Origin: Verrucomicrobiaceae bacterium
Lineage (GTDB): Bacteria; Verrucomicrobiota; Verrucomicrobiia; Verrucomicrobiales; Verrucomicrobiaceae
Direction of reading: 5' to 3'
Length of the DNA: 64,000 nucleotides
Assembly (NCBI GenBank): GCA_027486585.1
Contig: JAIXOU010000141.1
Span: forward strand, 1-64,000
Shown here: piece by piece, positions 15,335 to 29,080 of the stretch
Layout: the number at the start of each line of letters is the position of its first letter
Position numbering within the stretch: position 1 is the stretch's first letter
Notes under the pieces: model-generated
Database searches by the model: none
The model's input: the letters and a program-made list of their open reading frames with translations, nothing else
Told to the model about the DNA's origin: nothing
Program-made: the position numbers and the translations under genes

Positions 15335-18300
15335 CTAGGCTGCCTTGGTCTTTTCCTGCATGGAAAGAATCCTCATCACGGTCTCATTGAAGGCTTGTTT
15401 GAAGGCGTCATCCTGCCGCAGCATGTAAAGCTCCATGTCGGTCTTCCGCTGAGCGAGCACGGCTTGGTTGATCAGCGCTTCCAGTGCCAGCTTCTTGTTC
15501 TGCTCGTCGGGATTGTTGACCACCTGCTTCTCATAGTCAGCGCTTTGTTTCACGCGATCGACAATGTTCACCAGCTTCACGCGTTGTTCATCGGGCGTGG
15601 CGCTCCACGCACTAAACCAGCGTTCGTTGAAGGCGGCGATGATGTCGTCGAGTGGTTCACGTTCTTCTTCGGCACCGTGATGGCCGCGCACGTTCGGGTT
15701 CTGGGGTTCCAAGGTGGTGGCTGAGGCATCCAGGCCGATGTGCTCGTTCAGGCGGACGCGTTCGAGGGCGTAGGTGCTCAGGTCCACGCTTTCCAGCAGG
15801 GCATCCAGCTCGTCTTTGTCTTTATCCTTCACCTTCAGCTTGGGGACGAGGAATTTCAGGAACCAGTGTAGCTTCTCCCAGTTCAGGTTTTCAAAAGGGA
15901 TGATGCACGCCAGTTGGCCGTAGATCTTCACAAACTGCTTGGCCTTGATCTTGAAGTCGATCTTGTCCTCCTCGTCTTCGATCAGGTCAAAGTGAGCCAC
16001 GCAGTGGTCGATGATCGGGTGGAGCTGTTCCGGCGGAGCTTTTTTGAAGAAGGCTTCATTGAAGCGGTCCACGTCATCCTGATTATAGACCTCGGCTTCA
16101 TCCAGCTCGTCTTTCAAGTCATGCAGGACGTTGATGTCGGTTGGCTCACTCAGGCTGGTAGCCGTGTAGAAAGGATCGAAGGCATCCTTGATCTCAGCGG
16201 CGGTGTTGTAGAAGTCGAGGATGAAGGTGTTCTGCTTCGCCATCTTCACATTGCAGCGGTTCAGGCGGGAGAGTGTCTGCACGGCCAGCACGCCTTGCAG
16301 TTTCTTGTCCACATACATCGTGTGCAGCAGCGGTTCGTCAAAGCCGGTGAGGAACTTATTTGCCACCACCAGCAAGCGGTAGCCGGGCTCCTTGAGCTTG
16401 CTACGAATCTCCTTCTCAGGAAATCCGTTCAGGCTGTCCTCGGTGTGTTCGATGCCATCCACCACCTTCTTGCCGGAGAAGGCGATGATGGGCTGGAAGT
16501 CGGCGTTGGCCTTTTTGAGCTCTTCTCGGATCGCAAAGAAGTAACGGATGGCAGACTCAATGTTGCGCGTCACCACCATGCCGCGTGCCTGACCTTTCAG
16601 GAGCTTGGGCTTCACCACATGATCCATGAAGTGGTTTACCATCAGTGCAGCCTTGGTGCCGATGGTCTGCTTGTGGGCTTCCACATAGGCGCGGAGCTTC
16701 TTCTGGGCCTTCGCGGTTTCAAACTGCGGATTGTCCTCGATGGACTTCTGCACCTCGTAGTAGCTCTTGTAGGTCGTGTAGTTGGCCAGCACGTCCAAGA
16801 TAAAATCCTCCTCGATGGCCTGCTTCATCGAATACAGGTCATGCGGATCAAAGCCGCCGTTTGCATTGGGTTTGCCAAACTTCTCCAGCGTCGCGGGCTT
16901 GGGCGTGGCCGTGAAGGCAAAGTAGGACGCATTTTTGCCCATCTTGCGCTTCGCCATCGCGGCCAGCATCATGTCCTGGTAGTCCTCCGGCTCTTCAGCG
17001 TCATCCGTCGCGCCGATGGCGGCATTCAGCTTGTCAGCGGCCACGCCGCCCTGACTGCTATGCGCCTCGTCAATGATCACGCCAAACTTCTTGTCGCTCA
17101 TGTTGGCCATGCCATCGACGATGAACGGAAACTTCTGAATCGTGGTCGTGATCAGTTTCTTGCCATTCTCCAAATGACTGCGCAGGTCAGCGGCGCTCTC
17201 GGCATGGGCGACCAGTTTTTTCACTTCGGCGAACTGCTTGATGTTGCCGTCGATCTGCTTGTCCAGCACGCGGCGGTCCGTCACCACGATGATCGAGTCG
17301 AAAAGATTCGTCTGTCCTGTGCTGTCGTAGAGTTCGATCAGCTGATAGGCCAGCCAGGTGATGCTGTGACTCTTGCCGGAGCCCGCGCTGTGCTGCACGA
17401 GGTAGCAGCCACCCACACCTTCCTGCTGTACTTCTCGCAGCAGCTTGCGCACCACTTGCAGTTGTTGGAAGCGGGGGAAGTAGAGAATGGTTGTGACCTT
17501 CTTGGTTTTCTTGTCCACCTCATCCACCACCTTGGCAAAGTGCTCGATGATGTTGCACAGGCTCTGCCGGGTCAGGATGTCCTGCCAGAGATAAGCTGAC
17601 TTCGGGCCATCGGGATTCACCGGATTGCCTTTCCCTGCACCATCAGGCAGACCCTTGTTGAAAGGCAGGAAGTAAGTGCCCGCGCCATCCACCTTCGTCG
17701 TCATCCAGACCTCGTCGGGATCGACCGCAAAGTGGACGAGGCAGCGGCGGAAGTGAAAGAGCGTCTCGTTCGGGTCGCGGTCATCGCGATACTGCTTCTT
17801 CGCGTGGTTCACGTTCTGGCCGGTCCACGGGTTCTTGAGTTCCAGGGTGGCCAAGGCCAGCCCGTTGATGAAGAGCACCATGTCCACCGACTTCAGCGGA
17901 TCAGCCAGAGAGTAATGCACCTGCCGGGTCACAGAGAAGAGATTGCTCTCAAACTTCGCCTTCACGTCCGGGTTCAGGTCATTGTAGGGCAGACGGTAAA
18001 GAAGCTCCAAATGGGCGTTGTCCACTTCCAGCCCCTTCTTCAGCACAGCCAGGATTCCGTCCTTCTTCAGCTTGCGATGCAGCCTCTCAATCACCTGCCG
18101 CTTCCAGTCCGGCTTGTGATGCAGCTTGGTGAGTTCCTTCGCCTGCGTGCTTTCCAGGAACTGCCACAGCATCGCCTCATCCACCGCAAACTCCGCGTTG
18201 AAGTCGCCCGGCTTACCGCGCTTCCAGCCGTTGCCACCGATGTCCGGTGTCGGCGCTTGCAGCACGCCATCTTTAACGGCCACCGTCACGCCGCCGCTCA

Positions 18301-18355
18301 AGGCACGTTCAATGCAGGCTTCCAGGGCGGCTTCGTTGGTTTGGGAAGAGTTCAT
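15335..18355 (-). CDS. hsdR: Type I restriction enzyme R subunit (HsdR)
   Basis: A 1006-aa motor/nuclease subunit of a type I restriction-modification complex. The N-terminal nuclease domain has the PD-ExK core within VDMVLFINGLALATLELKNP (~155-175). The SF2 helicase part follows: Walker A SAGSGKS (~325), DEAH box (DEAHSSQGG, ~428), FTATPKP, and LNRCNVKMAKQ in motif VI. It is the last gene of the operon, 4 bp after abiEii. Its first ~68 codons exist a second time at 19894-20145, so abiE cassette entry duplicated the 5' end and left this copy intact. It cuts DNA lacking HsdM methylation. Confidence 0.95.
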   Translation of the reverse strand: MNSSQTNEAALEACIERALSGGVTVAVKDGVLQAPTPDIGGNGWKRGKPGDFNAEFAVDEAMLWQFLESTQAKELTKLHHKPDWKRQVIERLHRKLKKDGILAVLKKGLEVDNAHLELLYRLPYNDLNPDVKAKFESNLFSVTRQVHYSLADPLKSVDMVLFINGLALATLELKNPWTGQNVNHAKKQYRDDRDPNETLFHFRRCLVHFAVDPDEVWMTTKVDGAGTYFLPFNKGLPDGAGKGNPVNPDGPKSAYLWQDILTRQSLCNIIEHFAKVVDEVDKKTKKVTTILYFPRFQQLQVVRKLLREVQQEGVGGCYLVQHSAGSGKSHSITWLAYQLIELYDSTGQTNLFDSIIVVTDRRVLDKQIDGNIKQFAEVKKLVAHAESAADLRSHLENGKKLITTTIQKFPFIVDGMANMSDKKFGVIIDEAHSSQGGVAADKLNAAIGATDDAEEPEDYQDMMLAAMAKRKMGKNASYFAFTATPKPATLEKFGKPNANGGFDPHDLYSMKQAIEEDFILDVLANYTTYKSYYEVQKSIEDNPQFETAKAQKKLRAYVEAHKQTIGTKAALMVNHFMDHVVKPKLLKGQARGMVVTRNIESAIRYFFAIREELKKANADFQPIIAFSGKKVVDGIEHTEDSLNGFPEKEIRSKLKEPGYRLLVVANKFLTGFDEPLLHTMYVDKKLQGVLAVQTLSRLNRCNVKMAKQNTFILDFYNTAAEIKDAFDPFYTATSLSEPTDINVLHDLKDELDEAEVYNQDDVDRFNEAFFKKAPPEQLHPIIDHCVAHFDLIEDEEDKIDFKIKAKQFVKIYGQLACIIPFENLNWEKLHWFLKFLVPKLKVKDKDKDELDALLESVDLSTYALERVRLNEHIGLDASATTLEPQNPNVRGHHGAEEEREPLDDIIAAFNERWFSAWSATPDEQRVKLVNIVDRVKQSADYEKQVVNNPDEQNKKLALEALINQAVLAQRKTDMELYMLRQDDAFKQAFNETVMRILSMQEKTKAA

Positions 18356-18359
18356 TGGA

Positions 18360-19256
18360 TTAGGAATCTTTGTACCAGCCAGCAGCTAGCTGCCATTTCA
18401 TAGCCGCTGCATCGGCGGAAGCAAAGAGCACAGGTTGAAGAAAATCATGCAACCGCTCAATGATGACTGGCAGTGGATCAGCGCTTAGTCGGTTCTTGCG
18501 AAGAAAGGCAGACCACTGCGTAAGCTTGCCCTTGTCCTCAGCAAAAGCCTGCGTCAGGGCCAGCATGGGCTCCTTTGGCCACTCGGTGCCGCGATTGGCA
18601 AAAGTCGCCCAGATAGCATCATGAAGCGTCTGGTGGTTAAACTCAAGGTGTCGGCATAGCCAGTCTAAGTCGAAGAAGTCCTTCATCCGGCTATTGCCCA
18701 AGCCCAGTTCTTGAGCCGCATTCAGCTTCTCCGCAATTACCGTCTCTGGCGGGTAGGTCAGCAGCCGCGCGGCAGGGAAGTCCAGCAGCTCACGCCACTC
18801 TAGCTCCACGGGGGCGGGCGTGATGGCATCACCAAAGCCGATGTCGATCTGAAGAGGGATGAGAGCTTTTGCCAGCACCACTTTCACAGCGACACGTACG
18901 CCTTCATAGTGCTGGTCCTCACGGATGCGGGAAACGTTGATCTCGCCCCAGACGAGTCCATCGTCAGGGTCTGCTGGCTTCGCCAACAATTCCTCAAAAA
19001 ACGCCTTCACACCAGCGAGCGAAGAATCACCGAAACACAGAAGGTCAAGATCGCGCGTTGGACGATGAGGGGAGGCCTGCCACACTGAAAAAACCTGGGC
19101 ACCTTTGAGCACGAACTGCCGCTCTGTTTCACACTGACTCAGCCGCCAAAGAAGACGCCCGATAGCGAAGCGCTCCATCAGCGTCGGCAGATCGATTCCG
19201 CTGGCTCGGAAAACATTCATCAGCCGCGCTCGGACTGAGTCGGCCACGTTGGTCAT
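18360..19256 (-). CDS. abiEii: AbiEii/AbiGii-type nucleotidyltransferase toxin
   Basis: A 298-aa protein of the AbiEii toxin family (type IV toxin-antitoxin, abortive infection). The nucleotidyltransferase motif HRPTRDLDLLCFG lies at ~60-73, and the later motif MKDFFDLDWLCRHL matches the family. It overlaps abiEi by an ATGA (stop of abiEi/start of abiEii at 19253-19256), as in known AbiE pairs. Family members transfer nucleotides, in some cases to tRNA, and stop growth when phage infect. It is inserted between the ParA gene and hsdR of a type I restriction operon. Confidence 0.92.
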   Translation of the reverse strand: MTNVADSVRARLMNVFRASGIDLPTLMERFAIGRLLWRLSQCETERQFVLKGAQVFSVWQASPHRPTRDLDLLCFGDSSLAGVKAFFEELLAKPADPDDGLVWGEINVSRIREDQHYEGVRVAVKVVLAKALIPLQIDIGFGDAITPAPVELEWRELLDFPAARLLTYPPETVIAEKLNAAQELGLGNSRMKDFFDLDWLCRHLEFNHQTLHDAIWATFANRGTEWPKEPMLALTQAFAEDKGKLTQWSAFLRKNRLSADPLPVIIERLHDFLQPVLFASADAAAMKWQLAAGWYKDS

Positions 19257-19861
19257 GCCAGCACCTCCATGTAGGGCTGCATGACGCGGGACATGCCCAT
19301 GATTTTGGCATAGTGGTGAATATTCGCCAGACTATGACGCCGATGTTGCATACGCTCGCGTAGGGCCTCGATGCAGAGTTCCAGAGTCACCAAGCTGCGA
19401 TGCTTAAAACAGTCCACAATGGTGCGATCCACGTTCGTTATTCGCACCGGATAACCGTCCAGCATGTGCGTTTCCACCCCCTCGCTAAAGGCCTCGGGCA
19501 TCCGACTGCGGATGATGCGTAGTGTCAGGTGCTTTAGCTTGGGAGCCGGATAATTGGATGGCAGCTGCATCCAGACACCCCTCGGCATGTGGGTGCCGAT
19601 TCCGTGAAACGCCAGCGCACTGACGAGCACGATCACCCCTTTGGGCACCAGGATGGACGCCTCAACGATGTCTGGGTGGGCATGCCATTCAGCCTCAGTG
19701 ATGTGATAGAGTCCCCGGCCCATGCGTTCCAGCGCGCCTGAGCGAGTGAGTCGGGTGAGCGTAGTCGTAGAAACACCTGCCGCCACAGCGTCAGCACCGC
19801 GAATGATCGGTGAGCGCTCGGCCAGCTTGGCTAGCTTTTCGAGGGGGCTAAGTGTCTTCAT
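19253..19861 (-). CDS. abiEi: AbiEi-type antitoxin/transcriptional repressor
   Basis: A 202-aa protein. The N-terminal winged helix-turn-helix (RGADAVAAGVSTTTLTRLTR) is followed by GALERMGRGLYHIT and the AbiEi C-terminal domain (VSALAFHGIGTHMPRGVW, VRITNVDRTIVDCFKHR). In studied pairs the protein neutralises AbiEii without direct binding and represses its own promoter through inverted repeats. The ATG at 19861 was chosen because the upstream extension crosses the operator. A perfect 15-bp inverted repeat lies 12 bp upstream of this start. Confidence 0.92.
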   Translation of the reverse strand: MKTLSPLEKLAKLAERSPIIRGADAVAAGVSTTTLTRLTRSGALERMGRGLYHITEAEWHAHPDIVEASILVPKGVIVLVSALAFHGIGTHMPRGVWMQLPSNYPAPKLKHLTLRIIRSRMPEAFSEGVETHMLDGYPVRITNVDRTIVDCFKHRSLVTLELCIEALRERMQHRRHSLANIHHYAKIMGMSRVMQPYMEVLA

Positions 19862-19873
19862 GGCCGATGTTCT

Positions 19874-19910
19874 AAAGTCTAGGACATTGTGGATTAATGT
19901 CCTAGACTTT
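19874..19910. promoter_or_regulatory. Candidate AbiEi operator (perfect 15-bp inverted repeat)
   Basis: Arms aaagtctaggacatt (19874-19888) and aatgtcctagacttt (19896-19910) are perfect reverse complements with a 7-bp spacer. The element begins 12 bp upstream of the abiEi start codon, where the promoter of the cassette must lie. AbiEi proteins are known to autorepress through inverted repeats at this position. A terminator is less likely because the site is upstream of the cassette's first gene and lacks a following T-run. Confidence 0.8.
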
Positions 19911-20145
19911 GCAACATTGAGTTCCTTCTTCGCGCCAACTTGCTCTTCAGGAACTTCCAAAGCATCGCCTCATCCACCGCAAATTCCGCGTTGAAGTCGC
20001 CGGGCTTACCGCGCTTCCAGCCATCGCCACCGATGTCCAGTGTCGGCGCTTGCAGCACGCCATCCTTCACGGCCACCGTCACGCCACCGCTCAGGGCACG
20101 TTCAATGCAGGCTTCCAGAGCGGCTTCGTTGGTTTGGGAGGGCAT
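19894..20145 (-). pseudogene. Remnant of the hsdR 5' end (duplicated)
   Basis: The first ~69 codons are almost the same as those of the intact hsdR. Over 19962-20145 versus 18172-18355 about ten substitutions and one 3-nt indel are seen in the aligned part. Similarity fades out near 19938. The frame then ends within the abiEi promoter region. It starts 19 bp after the ParA gene, which is where hsdR would have begun before the AbiE cassette arrived. It encodes no nuclease or motor domain. Confidence 0.85.
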
Positions 20146-20164
20146 GGCAGGCTCTTACTTCGGG

Positions 20165-21157
20165 TCAAATCAGATCGAACCAACTAAGACGCTCAAGAAT
20201 AGCTTCCGCTAGTACACTGAAATCACTATGTGCCGACTGAACCGAATAGCTATGCGCGCCAATAGCTCCGTCGGAAGCCTTGAGATCGAAAATTGGTTTG
20301 CGGGCCTCCATAGCCATCGGAATGAGTGATCTATAGTGCTTCAGCATGGCGATCTGATGGTCGTCCACGTTGTCCCAAGATTGTGAGAGCCCCTTGGGAC
20401 CAAGGATAAACTCTTCATAGATTCCGGGAATCTTCTGCGCCCACCTGTCATAAGCCTTGACTAAGCCAGAGTCACGAAGGCCAAATTGAAGAATCACATA
20501 TCCGAGAGCACGAAGATGTCCTGCTGGTAAAGGCAGGTCGTCTGCAGGATTGAGAGCTGTCCGTGTCTTCCACTCGGAACGCCATCTTTTTAAGGTCGGA
20601 CCAAGGTTCTTGAGTCCTTGGAGAGAAAAGAGATCAGGAGCCAATGGTAAGACAATGGCGTCTGCGCAAATCAGGGCTGCTCTGTTGATTGCACCAAGGT
20701 TGGGTCCCACATCAATGAGAATCAGGTCAGCCTCAGCATCTTTGCCGGCGGCTTGAATAATCCGGTAAAAGGCACTCGTAGTGCGGAATGCTGGTTCTTT
20801 GCCATCCAGGCACTTTCCCCAAGCTTCTGAAAGCTCGGCTTCAAACAAGGCGAGACCAAGATCACCGGGAATGAGACGCAATGAATCACGAATCTTTTGG
20901 ACCGGAGCGGGTGCGATGTCTCCCGTGCCTCGGATGATTGGAGAGAGTGCCTGCATGATGCTCTGGCCTGGGCCAGAATCACTCCAGATATCCTCTAATT
21001 TGTCCTCAGGCAGAAACATTGAAGTGAGATTGGCCTGTGGATCAAGGTCAGCCACCACGACACGCTTCCCCATACGGGAGAACATCCACGCCAAATGATA
21101 GACGAGTGTAGTCTTACCCACGCCACCTTTGTTGTTAAAGAAGGCAATCGTTTTCAT
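20165..21157 (-). CDS. ParA-type ATPase within the restriction operon
   Basis: A 330-aa ParA/MinD-type ATPase. The deviant Walker A KGGVGKTT sits at residues 10-17, switch I 'DLDPQANLTSMF' follows, and 'LILIDVGPNLGAINRAAL' is the switch II/Walker B region. The family usually positions cargo or DNA, but single ParA-like proteins also occur in defence operons. No ParB gene or parS-like site is visible. The start overlaps the stop of the AlbA_2 gene (ATGA at 21154-21157), so the two are translationally coupled and probably act together. Base composition is less GC-rich than that of the flanking chromosomal genes. Confidence 0.88.
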   Translation of the reverse strand: MKTIAFFNNKGGVGKTTLVYHLAWMFSRMGKRVVVADLDPQANLTSMFLPEDKLEDIWSDSGPGQSIMQALSPIIRGTGDIAPAPVQKIRDSLRLIPGDLGLALFEAELSEAWGKCLDGKEPAFRTTSAFYRIIQAAGKDAEADLILIDVGPNLGAINRAALICADAIVLPLAPDLFSLQGLKNLGPTLKRWRSEWKTRTALNPADDLPLPAGHLRALGYVILQFGLRDSGLVKAYDRWAQKIPGIYEEFILGPKGLSQSWDNVDDHQIAMLKHYRSLIPMAMEARKPIFDLKASDGAIGAHSYSVQSAHSDFSVLAEAILERLSWFDLI

Positions 21158-22350
21158 CGGAGGAGATGCTTGCGAAGAAGGGCGAGAAAATGGTGTTGGG
21201 CAGGCGTGAATTCCACAGGAGGGCTTCCGTTTTCCTCCATACTGCGTTTCGCCATTCGAATGCCGTAGCCGTAGCGATTCACATATCCGAGGGGCTTCAT
21301 GGCCTCGGCGATGATCGGGTTCCGGTAATCGTTAAGGCTGGGGAAATCACTCTGGGAGAGTCCATAGAGGCCACCAGCATTTTGAACTTCGATTCGGTCG
21401 TTAAAAAAATAGATTGTGATCGGGCGGTTGAACTGGTAGTCGCGATGCACCACCGCATTCATCACAATCTCGCGCACGGCCGTTTCAGGATAGTCCCAGA
21501 TCAAGCGCTCACGCAGTGCGGTTTCCTTCACCGGGCGCTGGGTGAAACGGGACTTGATAAACATATCTAATTCTCTCAATACAACCATCAACGGACCGGT
21601 GAATTGCTTCTCCTCAATTGGAGGCCCGTCTTCCAGATGTTGTCCCTCAAAACGCGCAAATTGAATGTAGGCTCCTGGAAAAAAGTTCAGCGGGTCTTTT
21701 CCGAACATTAAGACCCCTGCGTTTGTTGGGCACTGTCGGATCGGATTGTAAAAGCGTAGCGCCGCAAGCTGCGCTTCAATGTTGCGCCCATTCTCGCGAA
21801 TCACCTCAGCATCCACGGCTTCACGCCGATAGGTGTTCTGAAAAGCATCTAAGTCCAAATCTTCCACTGTAGAACCTAGGCAAGGCGCCGCGTCAAAGCT
21901 CCGGAAATGGACGCTTCGACGCTCACTGAGGCGGCGTTCTTCCGCTTCAGAGGCTGTCGCTCGGCGCGGTCCAACACGGATATGCACACGCCCATCGTAG
22001 AACACAGGTGGAATCTCAGATGGCTGAACTTCGACCACCAGGAACTCACCACCCGCAGGATGAGCCTGTTTGAAAACCGACACCATGGGCTGAGGCAGGA
22101 TGTGCCCATCGTCCCGATAGGCCGCAAACTGCTTCTGGAGATCATCTGTAATTGGCACATTGGGAGACAGAGAACCATCGTCCTCAATACCAATGAGCAA
22201 ATACCCCGGCTTGCCGTGACCAGGCATATCATTCGAAAATGCACAGATAGCCTCGCGGAACTTCGTCGTGTTCGTGATCGACCGTGTCCGCTCGATCCGG
22301 TCGGCTTCGGTCGAGGTCAGGACTTCTTGAACTTGTTCAGGGGTCAGCAT
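21154..22350 (-). CDS. AlbA_2 (Schlafen-type) ATP-binding protein
   Basis: A 398-aa protein. The N-terminal AlbA_2/Schlafen domain is visible in FREAICAFSNDMPGHGKPGY and YLLIGIEDDG, with VHIRVGPRRATASEAEERRL after it. The C-terminal part has the GHKL-like ATPase region found in this family (AVREIVMNAVVHRDYQFNRP, IEVQNAGGLYG, NRYGYGIRMAKRSMEENG). Such proteins are frequent passengers of type I restriction loci; their action is poorly defined (nucleic-acid binding or RNA cleavage is proposed for relatives). It is coupled to the ParA gene by an ATGA overlap. Confidence 0.85.
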   Translation of the reverse strand: MLTPEQVQEVLTSTEADRIERTRSITNTTKFREAICAFSNDMPGHGKPGYLLIGIEDDGSLSPNVPITDDLQKQFAAYRDDGHILPQPMVSVFKQAHPAGGEFLVVEVQPSEIPPVFYDGRVHIRVGPRRATASEAEERRLSERRSVHFRSFDAAPCLGSTVEDLDLDAFQNTYRREAVDAEVIRENGRNIEAQLAALRFYNPIRQCPTNAGVLMFGKDPLNFFPGAYIQFARFEGQHLEDGPPIEEKQFTGPLMVVLRELDMFIKSRFTQRPVKETALRERLIWDYPETAVREIVMNAVVHRDYQFNRPITIYFFNDRIEVQNAGGLYGLSQSDFPSLNDYRNPIIAEAMKPLGYVNRYGYGIRMAKRSMEENGSPPVEFTPAQHHFLALLRKHLLR

Positions 22351-22385
22351 GGGGAGTTAATAAGCGCTGGGGGCGATATTCGCAA

Positions 22386-23375
22386 TCATTCCTCTTTTAT
22401 CAGTTCAATCTGAATGAGCGGTCCAGACGGCTCAGTTTCCTCGATCTTCAGACCAAGTTCTGGCTGCTGTAACTCAATGGCTTGGAGACGAAGCTTCGGT
22501 TTCTTGTAAAGTGATGTTCGCATCACTTCAGCGGTCACGTTTACAGACTCCTGATAAAATTCGATGTAGTTTTTTGAGTTTAATCCGGCCTGTGGCAAAG
22601 CGTCGAGATTGTAGTCGATGCTTTCGTGCTGGATCTGGAGAGTTAGCCTATCACCTCGGGTGGCTTTGAGGCTGGTGATGGTTCCACTAAGCGGATAGAC
22701 ATGCCCATCCTCAAGATGGGGGAGGATCTTGTCATCGTCAGCAAGGTAGTCCGCCAAGTTCGATTGATCGACCTTCGCAGAATCGGTAAACTTCGGATCA
22801 TCACTCACCTCGATCACATCCACCTTGTTCTCCGTCATCGGCTTTAGCGCTTTTTTGAAGCCCTTTCTCTTGATGAGCTTTTGCAGTGACAGTTGCATCC
22901 GTTTGGGCAGTTCCTGGACATCGGACAAGCGAAGCCGTTTACACCCCCCAGCGTGTTTCATTAAGCGCTGAGCAGCTTTGCCAAATACCAACGTCCAAAA
23001 TGTGGTATCAATAGGATGTGCCGAAACCCAATCATTGAGAGTTTTTCGAGTTTCGAGGGCGCTGTTAAAATAAGCCTCGACCTCATCAGCAAGCGGCTCT
23101 TTGGCAAGGCGCAGAAAAGTGATGAAGTCATCCGCCGAATGAAACGGCAGACCATCCGAGGTATCTCTCCACCACGCAGCAATCTCAATGATGAGTGATC
23201 CTTCGCGGTGACTGGTCGCCTGAACCTCGGGTTCCAGCCCAATCCGAAGGATGCGTGCAAACTCTTTAAAGACAGCATCAAAGCCTTGAAGGGACTCGCC
23301 AAGCTCTGCCAGCGAGATGTTAGAATCTAGCTCCTCATCCGAGCCCTGAAAACGAAGATAGAGATTCGGCTGCAT
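22386..23375 (-). CDS. Unknown 329-aa protein of the restriction operon
   Basis: I do not recognise a named domain. The protein is soluble, has no leader and starts MQPNLYLRFQGSDEELDSN. Residues ~10-60 look like an alpha-beta segment (NISLAELGESLQGFDAVFKE). The centre is basic (LQKLIKRKGFKKALKP) and the C-terminal half is beta-rich (VYPLSGTITSLKATRGDRLT), possibly a small barrel. It lies 15 bp downstream of hsdS and 35 bp upstream of the AlbA_2 gene. It is therefore a member of the operon and a likely partner of the AlbA_2 and ParA-type proteins. Codon use is more AT-rich than in neighbouring chromosomal genes. Confidence 0.7.
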   Translation of the reverse strand: MQPNLYLRFQGSDEELDSNISLAELGESLQGFDAVFKEFARILRIGLEPEVQATSHREGSLIIEIAAWWRDTSDGLPFHSADDFITFLRLAKEPLADEVEAYFNSALETRKTLNDWVSAHPIDTTFWTLVFGKAAQRLMKHAGGCKRLRLSDVQELPKRMQLSLQKLIKRKGFKKALKPMTENKVDVIEVSDDPKFTDSAKVDQSNLADYLADDDKILPHLEDGHVYPLSGTITSLKATRGDRLTLQIQHESIDYNLDALPQAGLNSKNYIEFYQESVNVTAEVMRTSLYKKPKLRLQAIELQQPELGLKIEETEPSGPLIQIELIKEE

Positions 23376-23390
23376 GGTTGTGAAATGGGC

Positions 23391-24689
23391 TCAGACTTTG
23401 ATCTTCCCCGTCACCGCGTGGGCGATGAGGGTGCTGCGGAGGGTTTGCAGGGTTTGGATTTGGGATTCAAGCTTGGATTTAGCACTAGTGGAAGCGTCGT
23501 TAATAGCTTGAACTCTAATGACCAGTTCGTCCTGTTCATGGCGTGGTGGAGTTGGAATCATAACCGTCTTGAGGCTTTCAGTTCGCAGGCAGCGAGTTCC
23601 GTGTCCTGACTCTTCAATTAGGGGCGTTAACATATCCTGGCAGGCAGTCAGCATAGTTAACAAATATTCAGGTGACATGACCATCTGGTTAACATCCATG
23701 CCCTTGATGTCTTGGTTAATGGTTGCAGGGACGGTGTTGAGTCCTATCGGAACCGTGCGCGCGAGAATCATTCCTCGGACAACGATCAACACAGTTCCAG
23801 GAGGCAATAACTTGATGTTTGTGTGCTTTAGAGCGGCTGGGGTTATGGTGTCTTCAGAAGAGTCAATTCTCAAACGCTTCATGTCCTTCGGAGAAATCCA
23901 CGGCACACCTCCATTCCAGAAGTCATTCCGATCTTTTGACGGTGTTGCCCCACTCACAAAGGACACCACGGCACCAAGTTTTCGGATCTGCCAATGCTTC
24001 GGAATTGGGCCGATCCAGGGGATGTCGGAGTCTTGCAGTTCGGCTTGGGGGGCGAGGCCTCGGGTGACGGCGCGGTTGATGAGGATGGCTTTTTGCTCGT
24101 CCAGCAGCTCGATCTGCCGCTGCTTCTTCGCGATCAAGGTGTCGATCTCCGCCGTCTTCTCATCCAGGAAGGCGACGATGCGGTCGATGTCTCGGTCTGG
24201 TGGAATGACCGAATAGCTTGTCTTGAAATGCTCATAGCGAAGACTGTTCATGTCCCCGCATAAGCCATAGGAGAGACGGTTGGCTTCGGTGATGAACTCG
24301 TTCGTGCGGAACAGATAATGAAAGAACTTCGACAGTTTTGGATTGCGCGGAGTCAGGACAACATAGGCAGGACTTACAATCCCATCAAAGGTTGAGATGC
24401 CCAGTGCTCCTTGCCAGGCACGCATCTTGTTGTAGGCAAGATCACCCACTTTAACGACCTTGTATTTGGTTTTGTCGTCGTTGGAAGAGTCCTTTTTGAC
24501 GGTGATCTCAGATTGACGAATGATGCCTCGATCTTGAGTCACGGATAACAGTTCTGCATTCGGCAAGTTGGCTTCTTTTCGTTCGTCAAAGATACCAAGA
24601 TTGCGCCTGACCTCCCAATGCTCCGGCACGTCGCCGAGCCATTCGACACCGGAGTCTTTGTACTTGGGGTATTTCGGGAAGGGGGTCAT
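23391..24689 (-). CDS. hsdS: Type I restriction specificity subunit (HsdS)
   Basis: A 432-aa specificity subunit. Two target-recognition domains are present, introduced by the familiar PEHWEVRRN (residues ~21-30) and PKHWQIRKLGAV (~225). Each is followed by a conserved helix with 'IDTLIAKKQRQIELLDEQKA' and the corresponding C-terminal coiled helix. The subunit sets the bipartite DNA sequence that is methylated and recognised. Its start overlaps the DUF1016 gene stop by an ATGA (24686-24689). Confidence 0.93.
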   Translation of the reverse strand: MTPFPKYPKYKDSGVEWLGDVPEHWEVRRNLGIFDERKEANLPNAELLSVTQDRGIIRQSEITVKKDSSNDDKTKYKVVKVGDLAYNKMRAWQGALGISTFDGIVSPAYVVLTPRNPKLSKFFHYLFRTNEFITEANRLSYGLCGDMNSLRYEHFKTSYSVIPPDRDIDRIVAFLDEKTAEIDTLIAKKQRQIELLDEQKAILINRAVTRGLAPQAELQDSDIPWIGPIPKHWQIRKLGAVVSFVSGATPSKDRNDFWNGGVPWISPKDMKRLRIDSSEDTITPAALKHTNIKLLPPGTVLIVVRGMILARTVPIGLNTVPATINQDIKGMDVNQMVMSPEYLLTMLTACQDMLTPLIEESGHGTRCLRTESLKTVMIPTPPRHEQDELVIRVQAINDASTSAKSKLESQIQTLQTLRSTLIAHAVTGKIKV

Positions 24690-25723: not shown

Positions 25724-28105
25724 TCAACGGGCGAATTGGAGGATCTGCTCCAGGAGGCCTTCAGTCTCGGTCTCTAGCTGACGGATCTCGGCCACCACGT
25801 CCTCCAGTGGACGCAGGGGCTGGTGCTGGTAGAAGTATTTGTTGAAGCTGATCTCGTAGCCAATGACGGTTTTCTCCTCGTCCACCCAGGCGTCAGGAAC
25901 ATGCGGCAGGACTTCCTTCTGGAAGTAGGCAGGAATTCCGCCTGGATAGGTGAGCGGGACGTTCTCAGTATCCCGCAGTTCGCTGTCGGGCTCGTAGAAA
26001 GTGGTCCGCACAGTCCCCTGTGCGGTCTGGGAGGGGGAACCGCACAGAGGACTGTGCGGACCACTCTTCTCAGAGCCACTTTTCAGCACTGGCTTGGCCG
26101 CTGGATCGCGCCAGGAGACAGCATCGAGGATGGCCTTCACGTCTGCGGGCTTGAGGTCGAGCTTGAGTTTTTTCACAGCGGCCTTGGTGGACTCGCTGAA
26201 GGCATTGAAGTCGTCGCTGGTGGCTTCACCCAAATGCTGGTGTAGCTTTTCGGCGGCCTGCATCAGGTCACGGCGGTTGGTCCAGGTGGCGGTATCAAGC
26301 AGCTTCTTTTTATTAGCAGGGGAGGTCTCCAGCTGCTCCTTCTCCAGCCAGTGTTCGACGGCTTCCTTCTGCGTGGTGAGAAAGCCTTTCTCATAGACCT
26401 TCTGGCCCCACTGCTGCCAGATCCATTCCATCTCGGTGCCGAGCGCGGGGACAAAGCGTAGGGTGGCGATGCGGTCGGTGCTGTATTGGGCGGACTTCCG
26501 CAGCGGGCGCTCGACGGTGATCTTCCAGTAGCCGAACTCGTGGTTGGGGAAGGTTTTGCAGCGCAGCGCGCTCGTAGGCTTGCTCGCCAGAGCAAGAGGA
26601 TCGGAAGACCGCGTCTTGGCAGACGCGCCTACGGCAGAGGAGTCATCCTGCATTCTGGTGAATGCGCTTACGATCTGCTCGATGTGGGCCTGGGTGAAGG
26701 CGCAGTTCTTTTCGCCGAGGTTCTTGCGCAGCTTCTCATAAAGCTGGGAGGCATCAAGAAGCTGGACTTTGCCCTGGCGCTCCTTGGCCTTGTGATTGGA
26801 AAGCACCCAGATGTAGGTGGTGATGCCGGTGTTGTAAAAGATGTTGTTCGGCAGCTGGATGATGGCTTCCAGGTAATCGTTCTCGATGAGGTAGCGGCGG
26901 ATGTTGCTAGCCCCGCCGCCTGCATTGCCGGTGAAGAGGGCAGAGCCATTGTGAACGGTAGCGATGCGGCTGCCGAGGGGGCTGTCTTTGAGCCGCTTCA
27001 TCTTGCTGACCATCTCCATGAGGAAGAGAAGCTGGCCGTCATCCACAGCAGGCGCGGCGGAGACGGTTTTCTTCTCGCCGTTCGCATCTGGCAGCACGAC
27101 CTCGAAACGTCCGTCGATGATGACGGTCTCGCTGCCTTTCTTTTCCAGGATCTGGCCTTGGTCGGTCTTCCAGCTCTTCCCATAGGGTGGATTGGAGAGC
27201 ATGAAGTCGAAACGCAGAGTGCTGAACTCGTCGGTGGCCAGGGTGGAGCCGTAGCGGATGTTTTCGGGGTTGTTCCCCTTGATCATCATGTCTGATTTGC
27301 AGATGGCGTAGGTCTCGGGGTTGATCTCGCGGCCATAGAGATGGACGGGCGCGTCTGACTTGATGGCGCCTTCGGGGTCGATGATGAAGTCCTGTGCCTC
27401 GGTCAACATGCCACCGGAACCGCAGGCGGGATCATAGATGGTGATGACGGGCGGCAGCTTCTTTTTGATGGGCTCAAAGATGAGGTGTACCATCAGCTGG
27501 ATGACCTCACGCGGGGTGAAGTGCTCTCCGGCTTCCTCGTTGTTCTCTTCGTTGAACTTGCGGATGAGTTCCTCAAAGACGTAGCCCATGCCGAGATTGC
27601 TGAGGCCGGGCAGCTTTTTGCCATCGGGCGCGGCAGTGTCGTGCGGGCTGAGATTGATCTCTGGCGAGACGAATTTCTCGATGACGCCGAAAAGGGCATT
27701 GGCCTCGGCCATCTTCCGAATCTGATTGGCAAGGTCGAACTTCTCGATGATCTCGCGGACGTTGTCGCTGAAGCCGTCGAGGTAGTGGGTGAGATTGGCC
27801 ACGAGCTGGGAGGGATTCCCGAGCAGGGTCTTCAGGGTGAACTTGGAGGTGTTGTAAAAGACCTGCCCGGCAGCGTCTTTCAGTCCCTCGGGGTCCAGCA
27901 CGGCCATCTTGGCCTCCTGCTTCTGGAAGCGCACCTCCTCCAGCACGGCGGCCTTCGTGTCTTCCAGCAGGCAGTCAATGCGCCTAAGGACAAACATCGG
28001 CAGGATCACATCCCGGTATTTCCCCCGAACAAAGACATCCCTCAGGCAGTCGTCCGCAATGGACCAGATGAACGAAACGATCTTATTGTGAGCGGAATGA
28101 TCCAT
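25724..28105 (-). CDS. hsdM: Type I DNA methyltransferase subunit (HsdM) with two in-frame repeat insertions
   Basis: A 793-aa N6-adenine methyltransferase. The HsdM N-terminal helical domain is at ~1-150, SAM-binding motif DPACGSGGM at ~224-232 and catalytic NPPYGKSW at ~304-311. Two non-family segments are present: residues ~491-511 (VGASAKTRSS...), encoded by palindrome 26573-26633, and ~680-702 (SGPHSPLCGSPSQ...), encoded by palindrome 26000-26065. Both keep the frame open, so the protein is probably still made. They lie behind the catalytic core, in the region that contacts HsdS/HsdR. It is the first gene of the operon; the promoter should be in 28106-28330. Confidence 0.93.
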   Translation of the reverse strand: MDHSAHNKIVSFIWSIADDCLRDVFVRGKYRDVILPMFVLRRIDCLLEDTKAAVLEEVRFQKQEAKMAVLDPEGLKDAAGQVFYNTSKFTLKTLLGNPSQLVANLTHYLDGFSDNVREIIEKFDLANQIRKMAEANALFGVIEKFVSPEINLSPHDTAAPDGKKLPGLSNLGMGYVFEELIRKFNEENNEEAGEHFTPREVIQLMVHLIFEPIKKKLPPVITIYDPACGSGGMLTEAQDFIIDPEGAIKSDAPVHLYGREINPETYAICKSDMMIKGNNPENIRYGSTLATDEFSTLRFDFMLSNPPYGKSWKTDQGQILEKKGSETVIIDGRFEVVLPDANGEKKTVSAAPAVDDGQLLFLMEMVSKMKRLKDSPLGSRIATVHNGSALFTGNAGGGASNIRRYLIENDYLEAIIQLPNNIFYNTGITTYIWVLSNHKAKERQGKVQLLDASQLYEKLRKNLGEKNCAFTQAHIEQIVSAFTRMQDDSSAVGASAKTRSSDPLALASKPTSALRCKTFPNHEFGYWKITVERPLRKSAQYSTDRIATLRFVPALGTEMEWIWQQWGQKVYEKGFLTTQKEAVEHWLEKEQLETSPANKKKLLDTATWTNRRDLMQAAEKLHQHLGEATSDDFNAFSESTKAAVKKLKLDLKPADVKAILDAVSWRDPAAKPVLKSGSEKSGPHSPLCGSPSQTAQGTVRTTFYEPDSELRDTENVPLTYPGGIPAYFQKEVLPHVPDAWVDEEKTVIGYEISFNKYFYQHQPLRPLEDVVAEIRQLETETEGLLEQILQFAR
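26000..26065. repeat. Double-hairpin palindromic element 2, in frame within hsdM
   Basis: Arms 26000-26025 and 26040-26065 match at 25 of 26 positions. Resolved further, a 6-bp outer stem AGTGGT/ACCACT encloses two perfect 8-bp hairpins, CCGCACAG-TCCC-CTGTGCGG and CCGCACAG-AGGA-CTGTGCGG, separated by a 14-nt G-rich linker. The total length of 66 nt is a multiple of three, and no stop codon arises in the hsdM frame. Confidence 0.85.
26573..26633. repeat. Double-hairpin palindromic element 3, in frame within hsdM
   Basis: An outer 6-bp stem CGTAGG (26573-26578)/CCTACG (26628-26633) encloses two perfect 7-bp hairpins, CTTGCTC-GCCA-GAGCAAG and CGCGTCT-TGGC-AGACGCG, with a 13-nt linker. It has no clear sequence identity to elements 1 and 2, but the layout is the same. 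The hsdM frame remains open across it and the flanking HsdM sequence (KTFPN...YWKITVERPL) resumes directly. Confidence 0.8.
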
Positions 28106-28410
28106 GAAAAAGCTTTTTGATTTAAAGGGCTAGAAAGATTGAATAGGCTGAGAAGTGCTCTCGAAGCCGATGCTGGCGCAGCAGTTGCAGGACTCGGGTA
28201 TTCTCAACGCTTTTCGTGCCATGGGGTATTTTCCCTATCTAAGCGGAGAGCGTTATGGATGGCAAGGGCAGAGGGTAAGAAAAGGATGAAGGAGGGAGGA
28301 ATCAAAGGATGAAGCACTCGGTGTCCTAGTTGAGACTAGGGGCCGGATTCTTGAGAATTGAGGGCTTTGTTGAGACGCTGAGGACAGATGTTGAGATTCA
28401 CAAGGATCGT
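28106..28410. other. Gap upstream of hsdM: probable promoter region and degenerate repeat onset
   Basis: No convincing gene is seen. The palindrome AAAAAGCTTTTT lies at 28107-28118, directly before the hsdM start codon. From 28331 a TGAG word recurs at 28331, 28352, 28371, 28392 and 28410, with spacings of 21, 19, 21 and 18 nt. This looks like a decayed beginning of the 21-bp array that follows. The hsd operon promoter must be in this gap but I cannot point to clear -35/-10 boxes. Confidence 0.4.
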
Positions 28411-28788
28411 GAGCCTGCTCAAGAGTCCTGTGAGCTAGCTCGTGAGCGCTTTGAGCCGGCTCACAAGCGCAATGAGCCCCGTCGTGAAGGCTGTGAGCCC
28501 CGTCGTGAAGGCTGTGAGCCCCGTCGTGAAGGCTATGAGCCCCGTCATGAAGGCTGTGAGCCCCGTCGTGAACGCTGTGAGCTAGCGCATGAGGAACGTG
28601 AGCCCCGTCGTGAAAGCTGTGAGCTAGCTCGTAGGCCCTATGAGCTACCTCATGAGGCTGGCAAGCTAGCTCATCAAAGCCATGAGCTAGCTCTAGATAC
28701 CTGTGAGCTAGCTCTTGATACCCGCGAGCCTGCTCAAAAAAACCATGAGCTAGCTCTCGCAGGCTGTGAACTTACCCCTGATGACTGT
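28411..28788. repeat. Array of 18 tandem 21-bp repeats
   Basis: Eighteen units of exactly 21 bp start at 28411 and every 21 bases thereafter. Two main forms alternate: gagccccgtcgtgaaggctg+t, and units starting with the 10-bp palindrome GAGCTAGCTC. In the one open frame each unit reads as a heptad, E-[P/L]-[A/R]-[R/H]-x-x-[C/Y]. Nine units end in Cys. The other frames contain TGA at each unit boundary. The surrounding frame (28330-28797) has no ATG or GTG start, only TTG immediately after a stop codon, so coding is unproven. There are no spacers, so this is not a CRISPR array. Confidence 0.85.
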
Positions 28789-29080
28789 GACCTTTGATGG
28801 CAGCAACGTGCGATTCAGTTTCGGCATCCCACGCGGCAACGATGGCCTGAACGGAACCAACGGCACGAACGGCAGTGATGGTATCAACGGCAGCAACGGC
28901 AGCGACGGAGCCCCCGGCGAAGTGACATCGGCCCAGCTCAGCGCTGCCATCAGCGGCACCAGTGGGAACACGAACAGCGTCAGCACGCTCGGCCAAGCTG
29001 CCGACGGCAGCTACAACCCCCAACAGATGCAGGACCTGATGAACAAGGTCGATGAGCTGATCAATGTGCTGAGGCGGTAG
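28781..29080 (+). CDS. Small collagen-like (G-x-y) protein
   Basis: About 99 aa. The sequence opens MTVTFDGSNVRFSFGIPRGN, followed by around ten G-x-y triplets rich in Asn and Asp (GLNGTNGTNGSDGINGSN...), GAPGEVTSAQLSAAISGTS and a helical end DLMNKVDELINVLRR. This resembles the C-terminal part of collagen-like tail-fibre/surface proteins. The N-terminal part may have been lost, because the start lies inside the last unit of the 21-bp array in another frame. GTG 28766 is an alternative start. It could be a truncated gene rather than a complete one. Confidence 0.6.
   Translation: MTVTFDGSNVRFSFGIPRGNDGLNGTNGTNGSDGINGSNGSDGAPGEVTSAQLSAAISGTSGNTNSVSTLGQAADGSYNPQQMQDLMNKVDELINVLRR

What the first reader, a model, noticed from the sequence alone, without database searches (positions are those of the whole stretch)
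26000..26633. Two double-hairpin palindromes inserted in frame inside hsdM
26000-26065 and 26573-26633 share one layout: an outer 6-bp stem, two perfect 7-8-bp inner hairpins with 4-nt loops, and a 13-14-nt linker. Their sequences differ. Both interrupt family-typical HsdM sequence without breaking the frame, so the methyltransferase carries two foreign peptides in the part behind the catalytic domain. In-frame REP-type insertion twice in one gene is unusual.
Basis: partly seen in the sequence, partly recalled or inferred. Interest (0 to 1): 0.75.

Follow-up and report, generated by a model that had tools for sequence, protein, structure and literature searches.

The report
Mobile palindromes inside hsdM reading frame
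Two small mobile DNA palindromes of a known type (REPINs) sit in frame inside a DNA-methylase gene and are translated as extra loops; a similar element in another gene of the same bacteria keeps its DNA letters between species far better than the gene around it, which was not expected.

Summary
26000-26065 (E1) and 26573-26633 (E2) are REPINs: paired, inverted REP palindromes with outward tags (GTGG in E1, GTAG in E2), of two families, both multicopy in this genome and in relatives (Verrucomicrobiaceae). A RAYT transposase gene framed by E1-type REPs was found in two relatives, not in the own genome. A third, decayed REP lies beside E2 (26649-26671). Both are read in frame and fall in low-confidence loops of the HsdM model. 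E2 is a net addition of 18 residues. E1 is not clearly an insertion: 6 of 12 verrucomicrobial homologues are two residues longer there, with other residues.

Precedent exists: in-frame REPs, two dimers in one gene, and GTGG tags are reported for Opitutus terrae (PMC3733652).

The surprise lies beyond the finding. An in-frame E1-type REPIN in a phosphotransferase gene is shared by nine genomes; in eight compared, its REPs differ at third codon positions by 0.056 per pair, the rest of the gene by 0.434, the linker between the REPs by 0.317. An E2-type REPIN in a second gene differs between two species only by one compensated stem pair. So some in-frame REPINs seem held at the DNA level, by selection or homogenisation. 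For hsdM itself this is only suggestive.

The parts
25724..28105 (-). hsdM, type I DNA methyltransferase subunit, 793 codons, host gene of both elements
   Evidence: ORF; Pfam HsdM_N and N6_Mtase
26000..26065 (.). E1, REPIN of the GTGG-tagged family; read as HsdM residues 681-702
   Evidence: inverted repeat; fold z -11.9; copies
26001..26025 (+). E1 left REP unit, tag plus hairpin
   Evidence: pattern match, none elsewhere in the window except its partner
26040..26064 (-). E1 right REP unit, tag plus hairpin
   Evidence: pattern match
26573..26633 (.). E2, REPIN of the GTAGGC-tagged family; read as HsdM residues 491-511
   Evidence: hairpins; fold z -3.2; family copies; same element in homologue L051, absent from L050
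26574..26596 (+). E2 first REP unit
   Evidence: pattern match
26610..26632 (-). E2 second REP unit, same tag and loop, different stem
   Evidence: pattern match
   Evidence: stem (I23); intact counterpart in L051
24686..25717 (-). context: DUF1016/YhcG PDDEXK nuclease gene downstream of hsdM
   Evidence: Pfam
23391..24689 (-). context: hsdS
   Evidence: Pfam Methylase_S
15335..18355 (-). context: large gene that reads as hsdR
   Evidence: ORF of 1006 aa; the name is my reading, not scanned

Best explanation
E1 and E2 are REPINs, non-autonomous palindromic elements copied by RAYT (IS200-like tyrosine) transposases, which recognise the unpaired GTGG/GTAG tag and the hairpin of each REP in single-stranded DNA. 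Two different families landed in two loops of hsdM. Copies that kept the frame survived because the loops tolerate extra residues, so the cell translates the palindromes as parts of HsdM. Shown here: element identity, copy number, in-frame reading, natural length variation at both sites, low model confidence there, and an E1-framed RAYT gene in two relatives. Inferred: mobilisation by that RAYT, that HsdM still works, and that HsdM gains nothing.
For: Tags, paired hairpins and inverted layout. Dispersed copies with reversed-pattern controls of 0 (E1) and 1 (E2) in the own genome. RAYT gene inside E1 clusters in G086 and G027. L050 lacks both elements, L051 has E2 but not E1, L052 has another double hairpin at the E2 site. 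E2 site is 44 residues in 9 of 9 of L053 and L194-L201 and 37-54 in the 70 rows L202-L271. Coded stretches have pLDDT near or under 50. Same kind of in-frame copies in other genes.
Against: No RAYT beside E1 in the own genome, and no RAYT found with E2-type REPs (only eight own RAYT loci were read). E1 is not a clean insertion against the nearest homologues. Activity of this HsdM is untested. The nucleotide-level retention seen in other genes is more than plain tolerance predicts.
Confidence: 0.85

Rival explanations
1. The palindromes are working parts of this gene: the hairpins act in the mRNA or DNA (ribosome pausing between domains, transcript stability) or the residues act in HsdM, and they were kept here for that.
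For: E2 letters are unchanged between the window and L051 (0 of 48 REP nucleotides, 3 of 12 in the linker, 216 of 771 gene third positions). In two other genes in-frame REPs outlast synonymous sites.
Against: Only one hsdM pair shares an element, and just downstream third positions differ at only 2 of 30. Close homologues do without E1 and E2. The same families sit in unrelated genes and, for E1, mostly outside genes by my screen.
Confidence: 0.07
2. Exchange by recombination: hsdM alleles with ready-made elements were imported from other species, and no REP transposition into this gene happened in this lineage.
For: L051, from another genus, shares E2 and the third REP although L050 of the same genus is more alike overall. 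Identity to L050 drops around both elements. The phosphotransferase tree also needs at least 4 label changes.
Against: This explains how alleles spread, not how the elements first entered. No donor with E1 in hsdM was found among the 20 relatives with a homologue or the 80 named loci.
Confidence: 0.07
3. Chance hairpins of ordinary coding sequence.
For: Short inverted pairs are common in this region (24 listed).
Against: Multicopy families with fixed tag and loop and near-zero controls; fold z -11.9 and -3.2.
Confidence: 0.01

Closest known systems
GTAG-tagged REP families with intragenic copies, above all in Opitutus terrae (Di Nocera et al. 2013, PMC3733652; section 15 and first part of section 17 read, other passages seen)
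   Same: Tagged palindromes, dimers, in-frame copies in many genes, two dimers in one gene (uvrA), phylum Verrucomicrobia, and a family whose tag is mostly GTGG (GTAG-20)
   Different: Other family of the phylum, other host gene; hsdM, methyltransferase and restriction do not occur in the main text (its supplement was not seen). No comparison with synonymous sites there (the word is absent)
REPINs and RAYTs of Pseudomonas fluorescens SBW25 (Bertels and Rainey 2011, PMC3116915; first part of section 10 read, passages seen)
   Same: Two inverted REPs with a spacer as the unit; the most abundant 16-mer there also begins GTGG; doublets more alike than singlets; compensatory changes
   Different: Described there as primarily extragenic and compared within one genome, not in frame and between species
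Rickettsia palindromic elements (known here from PMC3733652 passages)
   Same: Palindromic repeats read in frame in many unrelated genes
   Different: RPE-4 and RPE-6 fall in the CGTC super-family of that paper, which its table does not associate with transposase genes; no sequence comparison was made here

Membership tests
REP / REPIN | short hairpin with an unpaired GTAG-like tag at one end | tested here: met
   GTGG (E1) and GTAGGC (E2) with 8-bp and 7-bp stems
REP / REPIN | two REP units in inverted orientation with a spacer | tested here: met
   both elements
REP / REPIN | many dispersed copies in the genome | tested here: met
   E1 15 matches, control 0; E2-type 22, control 1
REP / REPIN | RAYT-class transposase gene in the genome | tested here: met
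   14 Y1_Tnp matches in the own genome
REP / REPIN | RAYT gene framed by the same REP family | tested here: inconclusive
   E1: yes in G086 and G027, not in the own genome. E2: none in the eight own RAYT loci read; other RAYT loci were not examined for it
REP / REPIN | copies lie mostly outside genes | tested here: met
   87 of 98 E1-type clusters fail the coding screen, four of these in genes by eye; 72 of 78 E2-type clusters fail it; hand-picked samples
REP / REPIN | mobilised by its RAYT | not testable with these tools
   needs an experiment
Rickettsia palindromic elements | sequence homology to RPE families | not tested
   only the way of insertion was compared
type I HsdM (host gene) | HsdM N-terminal and N6-methylase domains, hsdS in the operon | tested here: met
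   Pfam; nearest solved chains by fold are type I M subunits

The most novel reading that the evidence does not exclude
In-frame REPINs in this genus are not fading scars. The REPs inside coding genes keep tag and stem for longer than synonymous sites stay alike, either because the hairpin is selected in place or because the REP population keeps rewriting it. The APH-like phosphotransferase, a DUF7133/HEAT gene and possibly hsdM thus carry live members of a mobile-element population inside their reading frames, and synonymous sites give an internal clock to tell selection from homogenisation.
Probability: 0.5. Interest if true: 0.7.

Novelty: new member of a known kind. Interest (0 to 1): 0.5.

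Why it matters
Whether REPs are kept because they do something for the cell or because they copy themselves is unsettled (PMC8049555, introduction, passages seen). Between genes there is no good neutral yardstick. Inside a reading frame there are three: third codon positions, the flanking gene, and the spacer between the two REPs. The phosphotransferase case of this genus offers all three and shows an excess of conservation confined to the REPs. The hsdM case adds two REP families in two loops of one methylase.

Tried and rejected
Six-frame openness. E1 has no stop in any of six frames; E2 has one in two of six. I considered a family shaped for coding sequence, but by my screen most copies lie between genes; not claimed.

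Methyltransferase preference. Of 13 E1-type host genes scanned, three are DNA methyltransferases: window HsdM, L072 (N6_N4_Mtase) and L155 (MmeI). The window was the starting point, one of the 13 (L022) holds only a partial 24-nt match, and no base rate was measured. A lead only.

Single REP in the alcohol dehydrogenase gene: present in the own genome and G038 only, of 30 genomes viewed (49 of 115 have a homologue). Net gain 6 residues against L355 for a 9-codon REP, but other homologues are as long as the window's genome without a REP, so a deletion with the insertion is not shown.

KdpD of G086 against G027: REP codons differ at 2 of 16 third positions, the gene at 194 of 967; not informative.

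Compensated stem of G044 as proof of selection. The same CTCAG stem exists as a minor REP subfamily in 9 of 20 genomes; G044 has three copies, this one included, so conversion is not excluded. The pair count alone is weak: 47 of 500 shuffles reach it.

Excision footprint. L050 keeps AAGCCTACG at the E2 site, which recalls excision products that leave about 6 bp of the right REP (PMC3116915, passage). But L050 also has native-like letters where the window has the third REP, so it need not descend from an E2 allele. Left open.

Bacteroidota homologues L251, L253 and L255 have odd extra residues at the E1 site; I took them for other repeat-coded peptides (recalled), but the three genomes hold only 1 to 6 copies. 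L212 and L243 show one hairpin each at the E1 site. Not used.

Plasmid search: 95 records match, but joined pieces cover at most 17% of the query. Not used.

Codon-score screen. My first pattern was wrong and found 4 clusters; corrected. It misses real cases with low scores (L010, L013, L141, L152, by eye). Of its 11, L138 is doubtful; L102 and L103 are the same kdpD site, and for L103 the frame chosen was on the strand opposite to kdpD. L013 and L014 are overlapping contig ends of one gene counted twice. The 60 E1 and 60 E2 stretches were hand-picked from listed places.

Literature: eight searches. None listed a report, that I recognised, of an in-frame REPIN compared between species with synonymous sites; the library holds open-licence papers only.

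Full report
WHAT IS THERE. The window carries a type I restriction-modification operon on the minus strand: hsdM 28105-25724, a DUF1016/YhcG nuclease gene, hsdS, further genes, and at 18355-15335 a 1006-aa gene that reads as hsdR (the hsdR name is my reading). Each is two REP units in inverted orientation with the tags outside: GTGGT-CCGCACAG-loop-CTGTGCGG in E1 and GTAGG-stem-GCCA-stem in E2. The two E2 units share tag and loop but differ in the stem, as do other copies of that family. A third, decayed unit lies at 26649-26671; it is intact in homologue L051.

COPIES AND TRANSPOSASE. With up to two mismatches the E1 unit has 15 matches in the own genome and occurs in 50 of 115 genomes, own included; the reversed pattern has 0 matches in all 115. 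The E2-type pattern has 22 own matches against 1, at least one of the 22 (L047) without a proper stem. It is rich in some relatives (G024 51, G009 44, G011 31; controls 0, 1, 2), while single matches elsewhere equal the control; 56 of 115 genomes match in all. The own genome has 14 Y1_Tnp (RAYT-class) matches; none lies near an E1 place (on the one shared contig they are about 80 kb apart). Of the eight own RAYT loci read, L005 is framed by GTGGAACAGG units and L004 by a GTAGCATAGG palindrome. In two of eight relatives searched for RAYTs, G086 (another family of the order) and G027 (same genus), a 232-aa RAYT gene lies inside a cluster of E1 REPINs next to kdpD. This is the likely E1 transposase; that it moves E1 is inferred.

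HOMOLOGUES. 20 of 115 genomes have an HsdM homologue at E 1e-60, and the best 80 named homologues came from GTDB genomes. The nearest titles there are Verrucomicrobiaceae bacterium D8_MAG_00034 and Prosthecobacter sp. VE4, so the organism is of the Verrucomicrobiaceae, probably near Prosthecobacter (inference). L192 and L193 look like repeats of L050 and L052 and were dropped from the site table, which has 83 rows.

E2 site: 44 residues in 9 of 9 of L053 and L194-L201, 43 in L050, 62 in the window and L051, 55 in L052, which has a different double hairpin there. In the 70 rows L202-L271 it is 37-54 residues. The loop varies in length by nature, and two kinds of palindrome have entered it.

E1 site: the window has 58 residues; L050, L051, L052, L053, L194 and L199 have 60, L198 61, L195 53, L197 and L201 39, L196 and L200 33. 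Against the long form E1 is a replacement, against the short forms an insertion; I cannot say which happened. In the model (52-row alignment, mean pLDDT 79) residues 489-511 fall under pLDDT 50, and the blocks 681-690 and 691-700 average 49 and 51. Both coded stretches are thus poorly ordered loops, as far as a prediction shows.

HOW COMMON ARE IN-FRAME COPIES. Of 98 E1-type clusters from the own genome and relatives, 11 pass a screen for a spanning frame with coding-like codon use on both sides. By eye four of the others also lie in genes, one of the 11 (L138) is doubtful, and two (L102, L103) are the same kdpD site. Hosts scanned include an APH-like phosphotransferase, an alcohol dehydrogenase, KdpD, a NACHT protein, a protein kinase, DUF7133 proteins and two other DNA methyltransferases. 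For the E2 type 6 of 78 clusters pass, two of them the hsdM of the window and of L051; below the threshold are a squalene-hopene cyclase gene (L038) and L412. Both samples are hand-picked.

THE UNEXPECTED PART. The own genome's in-frame E1-type REPIN in the phosphotransferase gene (L010) is shared. Homologues occur in 66 of 115 genomes; I read 55 loci from 54 of these (six loci matched no text pattern, of which two, G032 and G031, could be read by eye and four were partial). Nine genomes carry both REPs (G000, G038, G017, G033, G008, G044, G006, G024, G043). Five carry decayed or interrupted remains by my reading (G003, G013, G036, G005, G032). Others have a short native loop. In eight carriers (G038 left out as near-identical to the own genome) the mean pairwise difference at third positions is 0.056 in the REPs, 0.434 in the gene and 0.317 in the linker between the REPs; at first and second positions 0.054, 0.124 and 0.277. 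Third positions vary in 4 of 18 REP codons, against a mean of 15.2 (lowest 9) in 20,000 random sets of 18 gene codons. Where the amino acid never changes, 1 of 10 REP codons varies synonymously against 146 of 176 gene codons (Fisher p 3e-6, which treats codons as independent). The ten codons on either side of the element differ at third positions by 0.40 and 0.44, so this is not a young tract. In the eight, tags never vary and loops vary most. With G038 added, 98.9% of 189 stem cells pair, with one compensated pair; 47 of 500 shuffles reach that.

BIAS. Carriers were chosen because both REPs were recognisable. Adding the three copies from impaired alleles that align without gaps raises REP divergence over all positions from 0.057 (left) and 0.060 (right) to 0.107 and 0.105; the gene over all positions has 0.228. 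Copies that do not align were not counted. Carriers are not one clade: on a tree of 45 rows (six of the first 51 eligible rows skipped for lack of a clear cut point) the label needs 5 changes, at least 4 forced. So alleles were exchanged between lineages or the site was hit more than once; the alike linkers argue for exchange.

SECOND CASE. A DUF7133/HEAT gene has an E2-type REPIN at the same place in the own genome (L043) and G009 (L412). The proteins agree at 739 of 924 aligned residues and third positions differ at 382 of 901, but the compared REP codons at only 2 of 45 nucleotides: the two sides of one stem pair, T-A to G-C. For hsdM only E2 is shared with another genome here: 0 of 48 REP nucleotides differ between window and L051, 3 of 12 in the linker, 216 of 771 third positions in the gene, but only 2 of 30 just downstream (8 of 30 upstream). 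This is suggestive only.

WHAT IT MEANS. The hsdM elements are ordinary REPINs in an uncommon but published setting (PMC3733652). The wider result, in-frame REPs that outlast synonymous sites, fits selection on the hairpin in place or rewriting by other copies of the family; the CTCAG subfamily keeps the second open. PMC3116915 reports that within one genome REP doublets are more alike than singlets and that compensatory changes are common (section 10), which agrees with either.

Noticed in passing
L102 and L103 (G086:C91, G027:C38): A RAYT gene and many E1 REPINs are woven into a kdp region in two different families of the order, with kdpD carrying an in-frame REPIN at the same place in both; the whole block may have moved as a unit.
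   Followed up: partly
L347 (G032) and L306 (G003), phosphotransferase site: The in-frame REPIN looks interrupted by other inserted palindrome-like sequence, still in frame: repeats inside a repeat inside a gene.
   Followed up: no
L052 (G011), E2 site of hsdM: A different double hairpin (GTGA-like tags, GCAGGCA stems) sits in the same hsdM loop as E2 in the window.
   Followed up: partly
L251, L253, L255, L195, E1 site of hsdM homologues: Homologues from Bacteroidota and one verrucomicrobium have odd extra residues at the E1 site that may be coded by other short repeats; low copy numbers in the three genomes searched.
   Followed up: partly
L055 and G086:C63:3562-3900: In G086 a RAYT gene lies directly beside an hsdM homologue.
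   Followed up: no
window 28330-28797: An open frame made of short, imperfect tandem repeats upstream of hsdM.
   Followed up: no
window 18360-24689: Between hsdS and the hsdR-like gene lie an unassigned gene, a Schlafen/AlbA_2 gene, a ParA-like gene and a further gene that may be a nucleotidyltransferase.
   Followed up: no
L072 (G086), L155 (G027): Two more DNA methyltransferase genes carry in-frame E1-type REPINs.
   Followed up: partly
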